DNA of 64,000 bases, taken from the NCBI RefSeq assembly GCF_009905545.1, contig NZ_JAAALB010000010.1, positions 62,001-126,000 of the forward strand, given 5' to 3'. Positions within the stretch are counted from its first letter, which is position 1, and every line of letters begins with the position of its first letter. The notes beneath the pieces were generated by a model. The model was not told the origin of the DNA. It did no database searches and saw only the letters and a program-made list of their open reading frames with translations. Of the stretch, positions 17,649 to 49,046 are shown piece by piece. The DNA comes from Cellulophaga sp. BC115SP (lineage in GTDB: Bacteria; Bacteroidota; Bacteroidia; Cytophagales; Spirosomataceae). A program made the position numbers and the translations under genes.

Positions 17649-18482
17649 TTACATATTTAGATTGAAATATGTTAAAAACCACTTGTACTTCATTAAATCA
17701 TCTTTCTTAGTAGGAATTAAATTTCTATTCTGATCCCAAAAATTATTTAATATTAGCTCTGTATCATTTCTTGAGAGAGCAACCTTTAGGATAGCAGCAT
17801 TGATGTTATCATCAGAAGTAGGATTAGGATATAAGTCAACATTTGCCAATTCATTCCAAATTCTTCTGTAGACAATCAAATTATTATTAGTTGAAATTTT
17901 TAAAATTGCTAGCTCGTTTTCATATGCCTCAGCAAAAGCTCTTCCTTCCTGATCATAGCTTACTTTATTTTGAATATTTCTATCATAAAAAAGAGGTTTT
18001 AAGAATTTACTTCCTCTTTCATGATTACAATGAACATTACTCTTACAAGACGCAACTAAATTATAATAAGCTATATCATGAGGATATTGAGGATGCGTAG
18101 CTCTATAGGTAAACCTGTCAAAATTTACACGAAAAATCACATACCTATCTAGTTCATCGAATCCTATTCCTATATATTGATTAAACTTGTCCTGTGTTTT
18201 CGTTTTATGAGGAATTATATGTTCTAATGTTGTATCTGCATCTGATATTTCTTTCATACAATAACAACAGTAGTTATTCTGATTTTGTAGAATAACCAAC
18301 TTCAAAGACGAATAGTATGATATATCTTGATTACCAGGCAAAATAATCTTTCTTATACGTAACCCATTATCATAGTCAAAATTACTGTACTCTCGATTTT
18401 GAGCTATCCATGAACTTTCAAGGAAACTATCAATAATCTGATGCCCTTCGATACGATGTGTAGATTTATCTATATACTGCAT
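17649..18482 (-). CDS. HNH endonuclease, PtuB-like (Septu / retron-associated HNH family)
   Basis: The 277-residue protein has a Cys/His HNH nuclease core: NNYCCYCMKEI (Cys72, Cys75), LEHIIPHKTK (Glu87-His88 and Pro91-His92, the first HNH segment), and YNLVASCKSNVHCNHERG (about 140-156, Cys145, Cys151, His153). This spacing matches the HNH family found beside retron and Septu ATPases (TIGR02646 type). In Septu, PtuB is the nuclease effector bound to the PtuA ATPase. Its ATG overlaps the ATPase stop as TAATG, so the pair is translationally coupled. It is AT-rich (line 18001: 18 G/C in 60). Family is from motif reading; phage defence is inference from known systems. Confidence 0.8.
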   Translation of the reverse strand: MQYIDKSTHRIEGHQIIDSFLESSWIAQNREYSNFDYDNGLRIRKIILPGNQDISYYSSLKLVILQNQNNYCCYCMKEISDADTTLEHIIPHKTKTQDKFNQYIGIGFDELDRYVIFRVNFDRFTYRATHPQYPHDIAYYNLVASCKSNVHCNHERGSKFLKPLFYDRNIQNKVSYDQEGRAFAEAYENELAILKISTNNNLIVYRRIWNELANVDLYPNPTSDDNINAAILKVALSRNDTELILNNFWDQNRNLIPTKKDDLMKYKWFLTYFNLNM

Positions 18483-19843
18483 TACTTATACGATTTCTTG
18501 AGTTGGTTAATTTCTTCTTTTAAAACACTGGGAATTTCACCACCAACATATTGTTCCAGTTTTTTCAACATCTTATCAGCTTCTTCTTGCTTATTTTTTC
18601 CATACAAAAATAAATAGGCATTGATGTATTTATCGATAGTCGTAGAACGAGGAGCAACTTCCATGATTTCTGATAAATTAGTGGAGTAATCTATCCCATA
18701 AATATTATCAATATCTTGATTTGTGTAATTATCTCCATCATTTTCTAATTTGATGATTTTACTTGTTTCACCATCCGCCTTCTGATTACTGATAATCAAA
18801 GGGGAGTGAGTGCTAATGATAAACTGTATTTGCGGAAAAGTTTTCTGAAACCGCTGAAGAACTTCTTGTTGTAGGGTAGGATGTAAATGCAACTCCAATT
18901 CGTCGATAATTACAATTCCTTGGGGTTCATGAAGACCATTTAAAATATAACTTCGATAGGCAATATCAAATACAATGGATAATAGACGATTATATCCTTG
19001 AGGTAAATGTTCAAAGAAAATCTCCCTTCTATTCTCAAAAATAAATTTAATAGATACAGAATTAGAATTTTTCAATGGTCTATCCATTACAATCTTATTA
19101 ACCTTAAATTCCGGATTGATAAAGTCATAATTACCCTCCAATTGCTCAGTAAATATCTTTATCCGATTATCAATAAACTCAATCTCATCTCTTTCTGCTT
19201 TTGTATCTTCTTCTGTTCTTTTAAAATCGTTTACCTTGCTGTATTGAGAAACGTATCTATTTTGCCAAATCTCAGCACAACTTGTATCGGCATCCCATTG
19301 GTAATACCCAAAGGCTCGTGGAATATTTCCACTTTCTAAAACTCCTTTGGCATAAGAACCAATATTGGTTTTAGTATGTGGATAAGAATCAGAAAAATAA
19401 GCCAGAACTGGCAGTGGTGAATTCTGTAAGTCTTGATTATATTGTTTTATAAAAGACATAAAGGCCTCTCTATATTTAGTATCAAGCAATTTACTATTAG
19501 AGGTATTTTTAACGATGGCCCAATCAATAATCGTTTGTTCAAAATTCGCTATGGCATGTATATCAATAGGATACTCATAAAGTTTTTTATCGATATTAAA
19601 AAAAGCATCAGTTTCTTTTAGAGTTACTAAGCTCAAATAGGCATTTGTTCCTAAAAGCTTAAAGGATTCATTTTTTGTTTGATACTTCGAAAAAATAAAA
19701 CTCAAAGATGCTTTTATAGCGTTCAATAATGTTGTTTTCCCCGTTCCATTTTTACCAATCAATATGGTAGATTGTGCGGCAAATGAAATGTAATATTGTT
19801 CAAAACATCTAAAGTTTTTGATTTTCAATTCTTTTAGTTTCAT
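18482..19843 (-). CDS. AAA/ABC-type ATPase, PtuA-like (Septu)
   Basis: From the ATG at 19843 the protein has 453 residues, starting MKLKELKIKNFRCFEQ, the classic RecF/OLD-like N-terminus; an ATG ten codons upstream (19873) is less typical. The motifs are Walker A GKNGTGKT (30-37), a degenerate signature region LPQGYNRLLSI (280-290), Walker B VIIDELELHLHP (311-322) and the H-loop STHSPLI (344-350). The C-terminal 100 residues are helical and charged. PtuA ATPases gate the activity of PtuB nucleases in Septu anti-phage defence. It is flanked by valS 130 bp upstream and the HNH gene downstream. RecF-like ATPases occur in several defence systems, so the Septu label rests mainly on the HNH partner. 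Confidence 0.82.
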   Translation of the reverse strand: MKLKELKIKNFRCFEQYYISFAAQSTILIGKNGTGKTTLLNAIKASLSFIFSKYQTKNESFKLLGTNAYLSLVTLKETDAFFNIDKKLYEYPIDIHAIANFEQTIIDWAIVKNTSNSKLLDTKYREAFMSFIKQYNQDLQNSPLPVLAYFSDSYPHTKTNIGSYAKGVLESGNIPRAFGYYQWDADTSCAEIWQNRYVSQYSKVNDFKRTEEDTKAERDEIEFIDNRIKIFTEQLEGNYDFINPEFKVNKIVMDRPLKNSNSVSIKFIFENRREIFFEHLPQGYNRLLSIVFDIAYRSYILNGLHEPQGIVIIDELELHLHPTLQQEVLQRFQKTFPQIQFIISTHSPLIISNQKADGETSKIIKLENDGDNYTNQDIDNIYGIDYSTNLSEIMEVAPRSTTIDKYINAYLFLYGKNKQEEADKMLKKLEQYVGGEIPSVLKEEINQLKKSYK

Positions 19844-19972
19844 AAAACAAAGGTTTATTTTATAATAGCTCATTTTGAAATGAGTGCTGCACTGAGGTAT
19901 CTACCAAAAAATTACTCTTGACGCCACTTAGATGCCAAGAGTAATTTAATGCTTTTTATTGTTGTAATAAAA

Positions 19973-44292: not shown

Positions 44293-45564
44293 CTACGCAA
44301 TCATATCAAATCCACAGTATGGTACCAATGCTTTTGGAATACGAATACCTTCTGGTGTTTGGTTATTTTCGAGAATAGCTGCCAAAATACGTGGTAAAGC
44401 CAATGCCGAACCATTAAGCGTATGCAACAACTGAGACTTTCCTTCAGTTTTCATACGAAGTTTCAAACGGTTAGCTTGATATGTTTCGAAGTTAGATACA
44501 GAACTAACTTCCAACCAACGTTTTTGTGCACCAGAGAATACTTCCATATCGTACGTCAAAGCAGATGTGAAGCTCATATCGCCACCACAAAGACGAAGCA
44601 CACGATATGGCAATTCTAACTTTTGCAACAAGCCTTGCACATGCAATGACATTTCTTCCAAAGCCGCATAAGAATTTTCAGGCTTTTCAATACGTACAAT
44701 TTCTACTTTATCGAATTGGTGCAAACGGTTTAGTCCACGAACGTGAGCGCCCCAAGAGCCCGCCTCACGACGGAAACATGGTGTATAACCTGCGTTTTTA
44801 ACAGGCAATTCTGCTTCTTGCAAAATCACATCACGATACAAGTTGGTAATAGGCACCTCAGCCGTTGGAATCAAATACAAATCATCTACAGTTGCATGGT
44901 ACATTTGTCCATCCTTATCAGGTAATTGACCCGTACCAAAGCCAGAATCCTTGTTAATCAAGATAGGAGGTTGTACTTCGGCGTAACCCGCAGCAATAGC
45001 TTCGTCCAAGAAAAAGTTAATCAACGCACGTTGGATACGAGCACCTTTTCCTTTATACACTGGGAAACCAGCCCCTGTGATTTTATTTCCTAATTCGAAA
45101 TCAATAATATCGTATTTCTTAATCAAGTCCCAGTGAGCCAAAGCATCTTCAGCAAGAGTTGGAACAGTACCATTTTCAAGAATTATCTCATTTTCTTCTG
45201 GCGTTTTACCTTCAGGAACACTGCTATGTGGTAAGTTTGGCAAAGTTACCAATACCTCATAAAGCTCAGATTCGATAGATTTTAGCGTCTCATCCAATTC
45301 TTTAGAGCGAGTTTTCAAGGTAGAAGTTTCAGCTTTGGCAGCTTCGGCTTCCTCTTTTTTACCAGCTTTCATCAAACCGCCAATCTCTTTGGCTAAAGCG
45401 TTTGATTTAGCGAGAGTAGAGTCTAACTCATTTTGGGTTTCGCGACGCTTATCATCCAGCACGATGATTTGCTCAACAGCTTCTTCAGCATTTTTAAAAT
45501 GCTTTTTTTTCAAGCCAGCAATAGTGGCTTCTTTGTTTTCCTTGATTTGTTGAATTTGTAACAT
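44293..45564 (-). CDS. serS: Seryl-tRNA synthetase
   Basis: SerS charges tRNA-Ser. The 423-residue class II enzyme has the N-terminal coiled-coil arm (residues about 25-105, Lys/Glu/Ala-rich), TAEVPITNLYRD (motif 1 region), FRREAGSWGAHVRGLNRLHQ (motif 2) and GSALALPRILAAILENNQ (motif 3). Length is normal. It begins only 16 bp after the DUF4435 gene on the same strand and I see no promoter element in that gap, so it is probably read from the defence-pair promoter. Confidence 0.97.
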   Translation of the reverse strand: MLQIQQIKENKEATIAGLKKKHFKNAEEAVEQIIVLDDKRRETQNELDSTLAKSNALAKEIGGLMKAGKKEEAEAAKAETSTLKTRSKELDETLKSIESELYEVLVTLPNLPHSSVPEGKTPEENEIILENGTVPTLAEDALAHWDLIKKYDIIDFELGNKITGAGFPVYKGKGARIQRALINFFLDEAIAAGYAEVQPPILINKDSGFGTGQLPDKDGQMYHATVDDLYLIPTAEVPITNLYRDVILQEAELPVKNAGYTPCFRREAGSWGAHVRGLNRLHQFDKVEIVRIEKPENSYAALEEMSLHVQGLLQKLELPYRVLRLCGGDMSFTSALTYDMEVFSGAQKRWLEVSSVSNFETYQANRLKLRMKTEGKSQLLHTLNGSALALPRILAAILENNQTPEGIRIPKALVPYCGFDMIA

Positions 45565-45580
45565 GGATTCTAATTATATA

Positions 45581-46426
45581 CTAGCGATATATGACACAGT
45601 TGTTTTGCAAAGCCCAGTTGGAGGTATCCCGAAATAGCTGAGTTTGTTTGAAATGCTCAAGGCTGTAGCTAATGCGACATTGAGCAGCAATATTTTTTTC
45701 ACTTATATCTTTACCATTTCCTGAACAGAAAAATGCTAAAACTTTCATAAAATCATGCCCGTTGCATACTTGAAGTAAATTATGAGAGTCGTGATACAAG
45801 GCTTTTACACCACTTATAATACTTTCAATATTTCTATTCTTTGCATTGGGAGAAAATGAAAGTATTTTTTCTACTATTTGCGTTTCCCCATAAACTATCA
45901 AAGATTCTTTATCAACAAAGTTGCTAATATTTAAAGGAGAAAATCTAAACTCGCATTCATTTCTTTCATTATACCACCTCAAATATCCGATAAATTGGAT
46001 TGCATTCAGGAGTTTTGTTACAAACCCATTCATTTCACTATACCTAATATCTCCATTATATTCACTAATTACTGAGTATATGGCATCCTTATTTGCCACA
46101 ATCATCATTTCTTCATCGTGATAATCCGAAAGAAACAAATTACTGTAAGTACTTTTTATCCCTTCCAAATGTAAAAAATCAGCATCTCTGATACCCATCA
46201 GCTTTGATTTATTACTTAGTAGTTTTATACCTTGCTCTAAAGAGTTTTTTCCGCCAGGAATGTATTCTACCTTTGTAATATCAGGATAAAAGAATTTTCG
46301 ATAAAATCTCACATCACTTTCCCCTTCCAGTAAAATAAATACTTTCTCTTTATTTAAAGGGTGAGACATATCGAGGCGTAGTTCTGTTATTTTTTGGGCA
46401 GGTGTAATGTCTTCTTTTTTCATCAC
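45581..46426 (-). CDS. DUF4435 TOPRIM-like protein, AriB-like (PARIS)
   Basis: The 281-residue protein opens with FILLEGESDVRFYRKFF (Glu34 and Ser37-Asp38 region) and continues LMGIRDADFLHLEG (Asp81 and Asp83) and LSDYHDEEMM. This E ... D-x-D arrangement is that of TOPRIM nucleases and of DUF4435, the AriB family of PARIS anti-phage systems, in which AriB is the toxic nuclease released by the AriA ATPase. The start is 5 bp after the ATPase stop. The C-terminal half is helical and unrecognised. Assignment to PARIS rests on domain pairing; other AAA-DUF4435 systems are possible. Confidence 0.8.
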   Translation of the reverse strand: MMKKEDITPAQKITELRLDMSHPLNKEKVFILLEGESDVRFYRKFFYPDITKVEYIPGGKNSLEQGIKLLSNKSKLMGIRDADFLHLEGIKSTYSNLFLSDYHDEEMMIVANKDAIYSVISEYNGDIRYSEMNGFVTKLLNAIQFIGYLRWYNERNECEFRFSPLNISNFVDKESLIVYGETQIVEKILSFSPNAKNRNIESIISGVKALYHDSHNLLQVCNGHDFMKVLAFFCSGNGKDISEKNIAAQCRISYSLEHFKQTQLFRDTSNWALQNNCVIYR

Positions 46427-46431
46427 AATGA

Positions 46432-47592
46432 TTAAGTTTCTAAATTAAATACTAAGTCCCATCTATCATTGATAATTTGCGGCGAATGTGTCGCTATAAT
46501 GACTTGCATTTTCTGAAGCTTCATTATTTGCAAAATGTCGTTCAAAAAACCTTTTTGCCAAGTCACATGTAACGAAAGCTCCGGTTCGTCTATTAGTACT
46601 AATGTATTTAGGGTAGTCTTAAAGATTAGCTCGTATAACATCACAACCTCATGTTGTTCGCCAGATGAAAGTTCTGTTAACTTTAATTCTTTACCTTTAT
46701 TGGTAATAAAAACAAATCCCTTTTTTCGGTCTATCTTAATCGTTTTATAAATAAATCGACTACTGTTTAAGATACTGGTAAAAAGCTCTAACCTTGCCAA
46801 TAATCCCTCAAAAACTTTAATCTTATCTTCTGAGTCTTTCAAATAAACTAACAGCACATTAGCATTCCTTTCATCATAGATTGGTATTTCTTGAATACTT
46901 TCCATAAGCCCAAAAGATTGAAGTTTTTCATGTTTCATTCTAAGTATTCTGAAACGATTATTAAACTCTTCAATTGATATTTTTTCGTTTTCAGTAAGTA
47001 ATCTTTTGGGAAAAGTACTATCTATTTGCTGATTGATAATATAAGACTGCTGTGTATATCTATCTAGTAACCCTTTTAATTCAATAGCACATCTATGAAT
47101 CGTATCGATTGTCAATTCTTCTTCATCTAACTCTAATAAATTGCCACTTACAAAGAGTGAACTTCTATTAATTAATCGTTGCTCTTTAATTAGGTGAACT
47201 TTGGGTGAATTTAAAACTTCATTCAGTTTCTGATAAAAAAATGATAATTGATTGTCTTGTTCCTCAGCACTAAAAAGTTTATTAATATTTTGTTCCAGTT
47301 TATAATTAGCTAAAACAATATCAAGTTTTTCTAATTGTAGTAATACATAATCTTGATCTTTCACTAGGGAAAGTTTGGTCTTATCTTCGGTTTCTATCAA
47401 AATACTCTCAAAAACTAGAGTTTGAAAAAACGCAAGGTTATTATTAAACAAACTATCAATGATATTCAAAATCATAGTCTTTCCAAAACCATTTGGTCCT
47501 GTAATAATAGACAAGCTCTCTTCATTATGAAGAGGAATAGAATAATCAAATATGTCGAAAAGACCTTTTATTTCGATTTTTGATAGTTTCAT
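46432..47592 (-). CDS. ABC-type AAA ATPase, AriA-like (PARIS)
   Basis: The 386-residue SMC/RecF-like ATPase has Walker A GPNGFGKT (32-39), a coiled-coil-rich middle (about 95-300), ABC signature ELSSGEQHE (307-315), Walker B LVLIDEPELSLH (331-342) and an H-loop IIATHSPQII (365-374). AriA forms a sensor scaffold that holds AriB until a phage protein triggers it. It is AT-rich (line 47041: 18 G/C in 60, against 29 in line 22141 of valS), which suggests acquisition. Its promoter element (47616-47623) lies immediately after the lysC terminator. Confidence 0.82.
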   Translation of the reverse strand: MKLSKIEIKGLFDIFDYSIPLHNEESLSIITGPNGFGKTMILNIIDSLFNNNLAFFQTLVFESILIETEDKTKLSLVKDQDYVLLQLEKLDIVLANYKLEQNINKLFSAEEQDNQLSFFYQKLNEVLNSPKVHLIKEQRLINRSSLFVSGNLLELDEEELTIDTIHRCAIELKGLLDRYTQQSYIINQQIDSTFPKRLLTENEKISIEEFNNRFRILRMKHEKLQSFGLMESIQEIPIYDERNANVLLVYLKDSEDKIKVFEGLLARLELFTSILNSSRFIYKTIKIDRKKGFVFITNKGKELKLTELSSGEQHEVVMLYELIFKTTLNTLVLIDEPELSLHVTWQKGFLNDILQIMKLQKMQVIIATHSPQIINDRWDLVFNLET

Positions 47593-47615
47593 TTGCTTTT
47601 ATTTTTTTGTGAGAA

Positions 47616-47623
47616 CAAAGATA
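47616..47623 (-). promoter_or_regulatory. Bacteroidota -7 element (TATCTTTG) for the ATPase-DUF4435-serS operon
   Basis: The minus strand reads TATCTTTG directly after the T-run of the lysC terminator and 23 bases before the ATPase start codon. The spacing fits a functional promoter. Confidence 0.55.
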
Positions 47624-47665
47624 AAAAAAATAGCCGTGGCGTAAGCTTCTGACGACACGGCTATT
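47624..47665 (-). terminator. Intrinsic terminator of lysC
   Basis: The 10-bp perfect stem AATAGCCGTG (47629-47638) with CACGGCTATT (47656-47665) is followed on the minus strand by eight T. The T-run merges into the promoter element of the next gene. Confidence 0.85.
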
Positions 47666-47687: not shown

Positions 47688-49046
47688 TTAGGGCGCTGAG
47701 AAAATACTTTTCATAGCATCTTCATATAAAAAACAACGCTCGTTAAGTGCATTTAGCGCTTCTGCCTTGTGCTTGCCGTGAATCAACAAGGAGATATTGT
47801 GCTCGGACGCACCGTAGGATATCATACGAATAGGGATGTTTTTCATGGCATCCAATACTTTCAAGGCAATACCTTCTTTGTCTGCCGAGAAGTTACCTAC
47901 GATACAAACGATAGTTTGATCTTTATCGCATTCTTCTAGGTCAGCAAATTGTCTCAATTCTGCCATGATTTCTTCTAAGTGCTCATCGCTGTCGATTGTT
48001 ACCGATACCGATACTTCAGAAGTAGTAATCATATCCACTGGAGTTTTGTATTTCTCGAATACTTCAAATACTCTACGCAAAAAGCCGTAAGCATTTAACA
48101 TACGAGTAGAGTGGATATAAATAGCCGTAAGGTTATCTTTCGCTGCGATAGCTTTGATTTCACGATCAGATGTTTTATCTGCAATCAAAGTACCATAAGC
48201 TGAAGGCTCCATCGTATTTTTCAAACGAACAGGAACACCTTTCAATTTAGCAGGAGTAATCGTGCTTGGGTGCAAAATTTTAGCCCCAAAATAAGCTAAT
48301 TCAGCAGCTTCTTCGAATGTCAACTCACGAATTGGGAATGTTTTTTTCACAATTCGTGGGTCGTTGTTGTGCATACCGTCGATGTCTGTCCAGATTTGAA
48401 CTTCTTCAGCTACAATAGCACCACCAATCAATGAAGCGGTATAGTCAGAACCACCACGTTTAAGGTTATCTACTTCGCCACGTGGGTTACGGCAGATAAA
48501 TCCTTGTGTGATGAAGACTTGTTTATCCTCTAATTGCGAAAGGATAGAGCTCAATTTTTCTTCTGTAAACTTCAATACAGGCTCATTATCTGCATCGATT
48601 AGCATAAAGTCTAATGCTGGCAACAATACCGCATTGATACCTTCTTCACGCAAGTATGCTTCGAACATTTGAGTTGAAAGCAATTCACCTTCAGCAACGA
48701 TTTCTTTTTCTTGCTTAACGCTAAAAGGTTTGATGCTTACCAACGAGCGAATGAATGAAAATTCTTTATCAATGATTGCTTTACCTTCTGCATATCCAGC
48801 AGGAGTTTTGTAAAGTTCTTTGATAAATGTTTCATAATGTGCGTACAACTCTTCGATTTTTTGAGTTGCTTCTGCATCATTATTCGCCTTTAATGATTCC
48901 CCAATCGAAATCAAGGCGTTTGTGGTTCCCGAAAGAGCTGACAATACCACGATCTTACGTGTGCTATCTTCGGTAATCAAATTTCTAATCGAGTGCATTC
49001 GCTCGGGCTTCCCTACGGAAGTTCCCCCAAATTTCCAAACTTGCAT
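47688..49046 (-). CDS. lysC: Aspartate kinase (monofunctional)
   Basis: This enzyme phosphorylates aspartate, the first step to lysine, threonine and methionine. The 452-residue protein has KFGGTSVG at residues 5-12, LKRGGSDYTASLIGGAI (substrate and ATP loop), TDIDGMHNNDPRIV, and two C-terminal ACT domains (about 300-375 and 380-450). There is no homoserine dehydrogenase fusion. ACT-domain feedback by lysine or threonine is expected from the family. It ends with a strong terminator. Confidence 0.95.
   Translation of the reverse strand: MQVWKFGGTSVGKPERMHSIRNLITEDSTRKIVVLSALSGTTNALISIGESLKANNDAEATQKIEELYAHYETFIKELYKTPAGYAEGKAIIDKEFSFIRSLVSIKPFSVKQEKEIVAEGELLSTQMFEAYLREEGINAVLLPALDFMLIDADNEPVLKFTEEKLSSILSQLEDKQVFITQGFICRNPRGEVDNLKRGGSDYTASLIGGAIVAEEVQIWTDIDGMHNNDPRIVKKTFPIRELTFEEAAELAYFGAKILHPSTITPAKLKGVPVRLKNTMEPSAYGTLIADKTSDREIKAIAAKDNLTAIYIHSTRMLNAYGFLRRVFEVFEKYKTPVDMITTSEVSVSVTIDSDEHLEEIMAELRQFADLEECDKDQTIVCIVGNFSADKEGIALKVLDAMKNIPIRMISYGASEHNISLLIHGKHKAEALNALNERCFLYEDAMKSIFSAP

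What the first reader, a model, noticed from the sequence alone, without database searches (positions are those of the whole stretch)
45581..47592. PARIS-like ATPase plus DUF4435/TOPRIM pair between lysC and serS
A 386-residue ABC-type ATPase (Walker A 32-39, SSGEQ signature, IDEPE, ATHS) is followed after 5 bp by a 281-residue DUF4435 protein with E34 ... D81-x-D83. This is the AriA/AriB architecture of PARIS. The ATPase looks shorter than usual AriA proteins as I recall them, so it may be a divergent branch with a different trigger or target.
Basis: partly seen in the sequence, partly recalled or inferred. Interest (0 to 1): 0.7.

Follow-up and report, generated by a model that had tools for sequence, protein, structure and literature searches.

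The report
Divergent PARIS phage-defence pair in Flectobacillus
Two neighbouring genes in a Flectobacillus bacterium look like a little-known branch of PARIS, a phage-defence system that in E. coli senses infection and cuts the cell's own tRNAs, and they sit in a gap between two housekeeping genes where related bacteria carry other toxin and defence genes.

Summary
In detail: a 386-aa ABC-type ATPase and a 281-aa DUF4435 protein, 5 bp apart, between an aspartokinase gene and serS. Both pass the published PARIS rule. PADLOC's best ATPase hit is AriA; the DUF4435 protein's only hit is AriB. The DUF4435 model's only PDB matches below E 0.001 are AriB, and the ATPase model's 16 best are chains of PARIS entries. 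Direct sequence kinship of the nuclease to E. coli AriB is very weak. The tree puts the ATPase on the AriA side, in a clade separate from E. coli AriA. So it is a PARIS-type pair of a separate branch; trigger and RNA target are unknown. Host tRNA-Lys lacks the cleavage dinucleotide of the E. [quoted passage not shown] Added result: the lysC-serS gap is a cassette hotspot; 39 of 110 family genomes examined hold over 300 bp there, and 30 of the 39 carry MNT-HEPN, PIN, PemK or PARIS-type genes.

The parts
46432..47592 (-). AriA-like ABC/OLD-type ATPase, 386 aa (proposed sensor)
   Evidence: Pfam AAA_15 73.8 bits; PADLOC AriA 1.1e-26; PDB AriA 2.3e-28 by profile; AF2 model mean pLDDT 84.5, 16 best Foldseek hits are chains of PARIS entries
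45581..46426 (-). AriB-like DUF4435/TOPRIM protein, 281 aa (proposed tRNase effector); E34, D81, D83, D104, E106 and the CNGHDFMK motif invariant in 13 rows
   Evidence: Pfam DUF4435 38.4 bits; PADLOC AriB 2e-15; AF2 mean pLDDT 90.6, Foldseek 8ux9_A and 8v46_D the only hits below E 0.001; alignment A2
47616..47664 (-). hairpin with T-run behind lysC (terminator-like), ending in TATCTTTG (47616-47623), a match to the Bacteroidota promoter element TAnnTTTG (element recalled; one search gave only a listing of papers that hold it); ariA starts 23 nt after it
   Evidence: fold of 47613-47664: -16.4 kcal/mol, z -4.9; sequence; TAnnTTTG in 16 of 24 lysC-side stretches, 1.63 expected from single-base shuffles. 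The terminator scan did not list this hairpin
45565..45580 (-). 16-nt spacer from the ariB stop codon to serS; serS may share the transcript
   Evidence: sequence
44293..45564 (-). serS, seryl-tRNA synthetase; border of the cassette site
   Evidence: TIGR00414 421 bits; same neighbour in G001-G004
47688..49046 (-). lysC-type aspartokinase gene; other border of the cassette site
   Evidence: TIGR00657 307 bits, cut-off 208.7; same neighbour in G001-G004 (split into two matches in G003)

Best explanation
A two-gene PARIS-type abortive-infection system of a branch separate from the E. coli one. Shown here: the two proteins are predicted to be an AriA-type ATPase and an AriB-type TOPRIM nuclease, encoded together, with the catalytic motifs that could be compared intact. 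Inferred from E. coli PARIS: the ATPase assembles into a ring that holds the nuclease inactive; a phage protein, possibly an anti-restriction or DNA-mimic protein, binds the ring; the nuclease is released, dimerises and cuts a small set of host tRNAs in the anticodon stem, so that translation and phage growth stop. If E. [quoted passage not shown] The pair is a cassette in a chromosomal gap that other toxin-antitoxin and defence modules also use.
For: Published PARIS rule met: AAA_15 73.8 bits against 32, DUF4435 38.4 against 27. PADLOC: AriA best for the ATPase, AriB the only hit for the nuclease. PDB by sequence: AriA 1e-17, next family PtuA 1.5e-5; with the profile 2.3e-28 against 9.1e-8. 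PDB by fold: the nuclease model hits only AriB below E 0.001 (3.9e-6, 1.0e-5); the ATPase model's 16 best hits are chains of PARIS entries (AriA, AriA-AriB or AriA-Ocr). A related ATPase lies directly upstream in 12 of 13 relatives of one scan, one of them cut by the contig end. Of 8 viral-contig loci with a related ATPase, 8 have an ORF of 280-350 aa directly downstream and all 8 match AriB models, at 2.1e-6 to 2.7e-15. The Yersinia phage pair lies between CI and integrase. E. coli E26, needed for cleavage, corresponds by motif to E34. [quoted passage not shown] coli tRNA-Lys and tRNA-Thr.
Against: No hit of the nuclease to AriB by phmmer (E up to 5) or by profile (E up to 10; the best was a chance-looking nucleoporin at 0.0038). 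hhalign against an E. coli-type AriB alignment of three gave 6.5% probability, E 0.0057, over 84 columns. TM-scores are modest: 0.53/0.49 for the nuclease, 0.49-0.63 (query-normalised) for the ATPase. PtuA profiles also score well on the ATPase (2.6e-23). One relative, the partial match L023, showed no related ATPase; in G308 the nuclease frame is in two pieces. In the tree the split from the outgroups has only 87/80 support and the own-genome AriAB-type fusion fell outside. tRNA-Lys, a main E. coli target, has UAAUGU here. No test of a defence phenotype of this branch was in anything I read.
Confidence: 0.75

Rival explanations
1. An ATPase-TOPRIM defence pair that works as a DNA nuclease (OLD/Gabija-like) rather than a tRNase.
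For: The TOPRIM nuclease of OLD cuts DNA (stated in PMC12409363); sequence kinship to the proven tRNase is weak; the lysines K60/K64 that grip the anticodon in E. coli AriB could not be mapped.
Against: Foldseek puts AriB far ahead of any other TOPRIM protein: topoisomerases and small TOPRIM proteins appear only at E of about 0.6 or worse. The two proteins are separate, and the next genes are lysC and serS, not a helicase.
Confidence: 0.15
2. A plain toxin-antitoxin or selfish module in a TA-rich site, kept by addiction rather than phage defence.
For: The same gap holds MNT-HEPN, PIN and PemK modules in relatives, and serS follows closely.
Against: In E. coli, deleting ariA or ariB was not toxic and abolished defence (PMC9122126, passage); relatives of the pair lie on phages and plasmids. 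G002 and G003 lack the pair at this site, and no DUF4435 match was found elsewhere in them.
Confidence: 0.07
3. A Septu- or retron-type ATPase system whose partner happens to be DUF4435.
For: PtuA profiles match the ATPase at 2.6e-23 and weaker.
Against: AriA leads in PADLOC, PDB by sequence and PDB by fold; in NCBIfam, which listed no AriA model, the best hit was a retron PtuA model far below its cut-off (39.6 against 500 bits). No HNH protein or reverse transcriptase lies beside it: the next genes are lysC and serS. A Septu-like pair in the same window scores 7.6e-65 and 8e-17 on PtuA/PtuB models and its ATPase groups with the outgroup (OUT_L098).
Confidence: 0.03

Closest known systems
PARIS (AriA-AriB) of E. 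coli, PDB 8ux9 and 8v45-8v49 (that these are the E. coli B185 system is recalled)
   Same: Order ATPase then DUF4435/TOPRIM protein; AAA_15-type ATPase; AriB-like predicted fold; acidic motifs that pair by eye (E26 with E34; D88-x-E90 with D81-x-D83; a GH motif near the C-terminus).
   Different: Nuclease 13% identical in the Foldseek alignment; ATPase 386 against 464 aa; separate clade; chromosomal lysC-serS cassette instead of satellite cargo; trigger and target unknown.
DUF4435 pairs of the same wider tree set: Salmonella IncHI2 plasmid (L032), Rouxiella plasmid (L033), Vibrio plasmid (L111), Yersinia P2-like phage (L114)
   Same: Same two genes in the same order, nuclease matching AriB in PADLOC, and in the same supported set of 22 tree rows (99/97).
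   Different: Carried on plasmids or a phage; nuclease about 25-27% identical.
PARIS-type pair in the same lysC-serS gap of another genus (L061, genome G537)
   Same: AriA 7.8e-57 and AriB 2.4e-41 in PADLOC; same site and same TATCTTTG.
   Different: AAA_21 scores above AAA_15, 335 + 345 aa; groups with E. coli AriA in the tree, with a long-branch warning.
Septu (PtuA-PtuB)
   Same: Related ATPase superfamily.
   Different: Partner is an HNH nuclease (recalled), not TOPRIM; a Septu-like pair lies at 17649-19873 of this window.

Membership tests
PARIS | AAA_15 or AAA_21 ATPase (32 or 27 bits) beside a DUF4435 protein (27 bits), rule of PMC9122126 | tested here: met
   73.8 and 38.4 bits, 5 bp apart
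PARIS | ATPase belongs to AriA rather than to related ATPases | tested here: met
   AriA best in PADLOC, PDB by sequence and PDB by fold; tree split 87/80, moderate
PARIS | AriB-type TOPRIM nuclease fold | tested here: met
   AF2 mean pLDDT 90.6; Foldseek only 8ux9_A and 8v46_D below E 0.001, TM 0.53/0.49
PARIS | Sequence kinship to experimentally studied AriB | tested here: inconclusive
   PADLOC AriB 2e-15, but no PDB AriB hit by phmmer or profile, and hhalign 6.5%
PARIS | Catalytic acids (E26 of E. coli AriB and the acidic pair of the second TOPRIM motif) | tested here: met
   E34 and D81-x-D83 invariant in 13 rows; the match to E26 and D88-x-E90 rests on motifs by eye, not on a residue-level superposition
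PARIS | Lysines K60 and K64 of AriB that hold the anticodon loop | not tested
   no alignment good enough to map them
PARIS | AriA hexamer sequestering AriB; release on a trigger such as Ocr | not testable with these tools
   needs proteins; the two Nature papers were not held, the model is read from PMC12409363 and PMC11455837
PARIS | tRNA cleavage in the anticodon stem | not testable with these tools
   only target-site hexamers in host tRNA genes could be compared
Septu | HNH nuclease PtuB beside PtuA (recalled) | tested here: not met
   the partner is DUF4435
OLD / Gabija | TOPRIM fused to the ATPase; in Gabija also a helicase GajB (stated in PMC12839542) | tested here: not met
   two separate proteins; neighbours are an aspartokinase gene and serS

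The most novel reading that the evidence does not exclude
The gap between lysC and serS in this bacterial family is a small defence-cassette socket. Toxin-antitoxin and PARIS modules are swapped in, without any integrase that I could see, between a conserved terminator-promoter and the essential gene serS, so that the module is co-transcribed with serS. The Flectobacillus occupant is a PARIS branch whose nuclease has shifted from tRNA-Lys to tRNA-Thr/Asn, or to another set.
Probability: 0.35. Interest if true: 0.6.

Novelty: new member of a known kind. Interest (0 to 1): 0.42.

Why it matters
The experimental PARIS work that I could read rests on the E. coli B185 system, plus a second assayed system whose branch I could not place. 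A compact pair from a separate clade, with relatives in archaea, a spirochaete and phages, would help to show which parts of sensing and tRNA choice are general. The lysC-serS socket gives a simple place to look for further small defence modules in this family, and a natural comparison of occupied and empty sites in sister species.

Tried and rejected
Tried without result: PDB sequence search with the nuclease alone or as a profile found no AriB. The viral-contig scan with the nuclease alignment found no confirmed relative, while the ATPase alignment found 8. Searches with a fragment of E. coli AriA found nothing in phages or viral contigs and 4 plasmids. A sigma-70 promoter scan found little above chance (14 against a mean of 10.7, sd 3.2).

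Considered and rejected: that the pair is Septu (no HNH partner; AriA leads); that the tandem array of seven tRNA-Lys genes goes with the pair (G002, which lacks the pair, has six closely spaced copies in the list); that the cassette is a transposon or prophage (the borders in G000, G001 and G004 against the gaps of G002 and G003 show only the two genes; compared by eye).

Literature: I saw search listings only. Of PMC9122126 I saw passages; of PMC12409363 parts 1 and 2 of 7, passages and one section; of PMC11455837 the whole text; of PMC12839542 passages. I found no report of a lysC-serS hotspot, but those searches were narrow.

Rows dropped before a count or tree: L016, L018, L023, L006, L007 and L031 were not put in the tree; of ten candidate outgroup loci I used six. 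Five genomes whose lysC and serS lay on different contigs (G031, G036, G512, G543, G553) were left out of the 110 pairs. In one search, L068, L077-L091 and G001 were not among the 24 stretches.

Full report
Check of the observation. The neighbours are an aspartokinase gene and serS. The nearest named relative is Flectobacillus longus LYT7W, whose pair is 98% identical in both proteins. Between the two genomes the ATPase gene has 14 silent and 7 amino-acid changes and the nuclease gene 8 and 5 (dN/dS 0.12 and 0.15). This suggests that both are under selection, although the counts are small.

What the proteins are. Pfam gives AAA_15 (73.8 bits, cut-off 32.1) and DUF4435 (38.4 bits, cut-off 27). 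These are two of the three profiles and, rounded, the thresholds that the discoverers of PARIS used to detect it (passage of PMC9122126). In PADLOC the ATPase's best model is AriA (1.1e-26), followed by a Septu PtuA model (2.6e-23); the nuclease matches one model only, AriB (2e-15). NCBIfam, which listed no AriA model, gave a retron PtuA model for the ATPase far below its cut-off and nothing for the nuclease. Against solved structures the ATPase matches AriA at 1e-17 with PtuA next at 1.5e-5; with a 13-row profile the figures are 2.3e-28 and 9.1e-8. The nuclease finds no AriB by sequence, alone or as a profile, and a direct profile comparison with three E. coli-type AriB sequences is weak (6.5% probability, E 0.0057). 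The structure model speaks more clearly. The AlphaFold2 model of the nuclease (13 sequences, mean pLDDT 90.6) has two PDB matches below E 0.001, both AriB (8ux9_A 3.9e-6; 8v46_D 1.0e-5; TM 0.53/0.49, 13% identity), and the next match is at 0.37. The ATPase model (19 sequences, mean pLDDT 84.5) has chains of PARIS entries in its first 16 ranks (6.6e-20 to 2.2e-13), then retron and Septu PtuA and Rad50.

Active-site residues. E34, G35, D38, D81, D83, D104, E106 and a CNGHDFMK motif are invariant in 13 rows. E. coli AriB has LVEGRHD with E26, CDREF at 87-91, HSLENY at 119-124 and RGH near the C-terminus; E26A abolishes tRNA cleavage. The pairing of these motifs is by eye. The lysines K60 and K64 of E. 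coli AriB could not be mapped.

Relatives and gene order. The genome-contig scan gave 13 loci; 12 have the ATPase directly upstream (one cut by the contig end), and L023, a partial match, has none. Hosts include Arcicella, Chitinophagales, a Leptospiraceae bacterium and archaea. In the two genome panels with the nuclease as query, 5 of 99 and 3 of 395 genomes matched, the own genome counted in each. Of the two others in the second panel, G362's match begins about 130 bases from the contig end, so nothing can be said of its ATPase; in G308 the nuclease frame is in two pieces, with the ATPase only partly seen near the contig end. Eight viral contigs carry a related ATPase; all eight have an ORF of 280-350 aa directly behind it, and all eight match AriB models. 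Pairs on plasmids and a pair between CI and integrase of a Yersinia phage of the Peduoviridae complete the picture.

Tree. In a 34-row ATPase tree the 27 ATPases from two-gene loci, E. coli AriA included, lie on one side of a branch (87/80), away from six other AAA_15-type ATPases of the own genome. The window protein and L011-L014 form a 100/100 set of five inside a 22-row set (99/97) that excludes the E. coli AriA clade (100/100). The own-genome fusion protein (first 300 residues) fell outside with a very long branch, and L061's place beside E. coli AriA carries a long-branch warning. So 'divergent branch' holds, with moderate support at the base. The short length comes from one variable middle stretch (about residues 90-165), part of which is also modelled with low confidence (103-108 and 142-161).

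The site. lysC and serS are neighbours in all five genomes of the genus that were searched. The pair fills the gap in G000, G001 and G004; G002 and G003 have only 237 and 211 bp there. In G004 the pair is only 50-56% identical although lysC is 93% and serS 89%. This points either to fast divergence or to replacement. An Arcicella contig (L012) has the pair between lysC and serS too, and L013 has serS behind it with the other side cut off. L011 and L014 are the same contigs as in G001 and G004. The hairpin behind lysC (-16.4 kcal/mol, z -4.9) is followed by TATCTTTG. TAnnTTTG, which I recall as the Bacteroidota -7 element, occurs in 16 of 24 lysC-side stretches, against 1.63 expected from simple shuffles. 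The cassette starts 23 nt after it and ends 16 nt before serS, so one transcript into serS is plausible but not shown.

A cassette hotspot. From the printed rows of two searches of 200 family genomes I took 110 lysC-serS pairs on one contig. The printed lists were cut by score, so nearer relatives are over-represented, and five pairs split over contigs were left out. 39 of 110 have more than 300 bp between the genes. All 39 gaps were read. 22 hold MNT-HEPN genes or their remnants, 7 a Y1 (IS200-like) transposase, 4 a PARIS-type pair (G000, G001, G004 and, of a different branch, G537), 3 a PIN-domain gene, 1 PemK, 1 GmrSD, and 1 (L063) small ORFs that I could not verify. Pfam was run on representatives; the rest were assigned by tblastn to them. 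Genomes of one genus are not independent, so these are counts of genomes, not of insertions. I saw no integrase among the longest ORFs of the gaps, by eye.

tRNA targets. E. [quoted passage not shown] Among the tRNA genes on the 30 fetched loci of this genome (44 matches were found in all), tRNA-Thr(UGU), tRNA-Asn(GUU) and one tRNA-Met have UAAUCA at 36-41, while tRNA-Lys(UUU) has UAAUGU. With E. coli specificity the host's tRNA-Lys should be a poor substrate. Whether this nuclease has that specificity is unknown.

Mechanism and confidence. The AriA ring, the sequestered AriB, and release and dimerisation on a phage trigger come from the E. coli work (PMC12409363 and PMC11455837) and are inferred here by homology. 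I put 0.75 on a PARIS-type tRNase defence pair.

Noticed in passing
window 17649-19873 (-): A second defence pair in the window: an AAA_15 ATPase (463 aa) followed by a 277-aa protein, matching PADLOC Septu models PtuA (7.6e-65) and PtuB (8e-17); it lies beside valS.
   Followed up: partly
L002, 616-2229 (own genome contig C146): A 537-aa single-gene ATPase-DUF4435 fusion matching the PADLOC AriAB model at 1.1e-64: a candidate second PARIS-type system in this genome.
   Followed up: partly
own genome contig C152, 205896-206905 (L115): Seven tandem identical tRNA-Lys(UUU) genes; sister genomes also have arrays (five identical copies in G001, six 97% identical copies in G002, which lacks the pair).
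   Followed up: partly
L061, 123-2145 (G537, lysC-serS gap): A PARIS-type pair of another branch has settled in the same lysC-serS gap in a different genus.
   Followed up: partly
L070-L075, L077-L091, L054 (lysC-serS gap): MNT-HEPN toxin-antitoxin modules or remnants in the same gap in 22 of the 39 occupied genomes, some visibly decayed.
   Followed up: partly
L059, L062, L064-L066, L068, L069 (lysC-serS gap): Y1 (IS200-like) transposase genes in seven of the gaps; L068 also has a run of near-identical short repeats in front.
   Followed up: no
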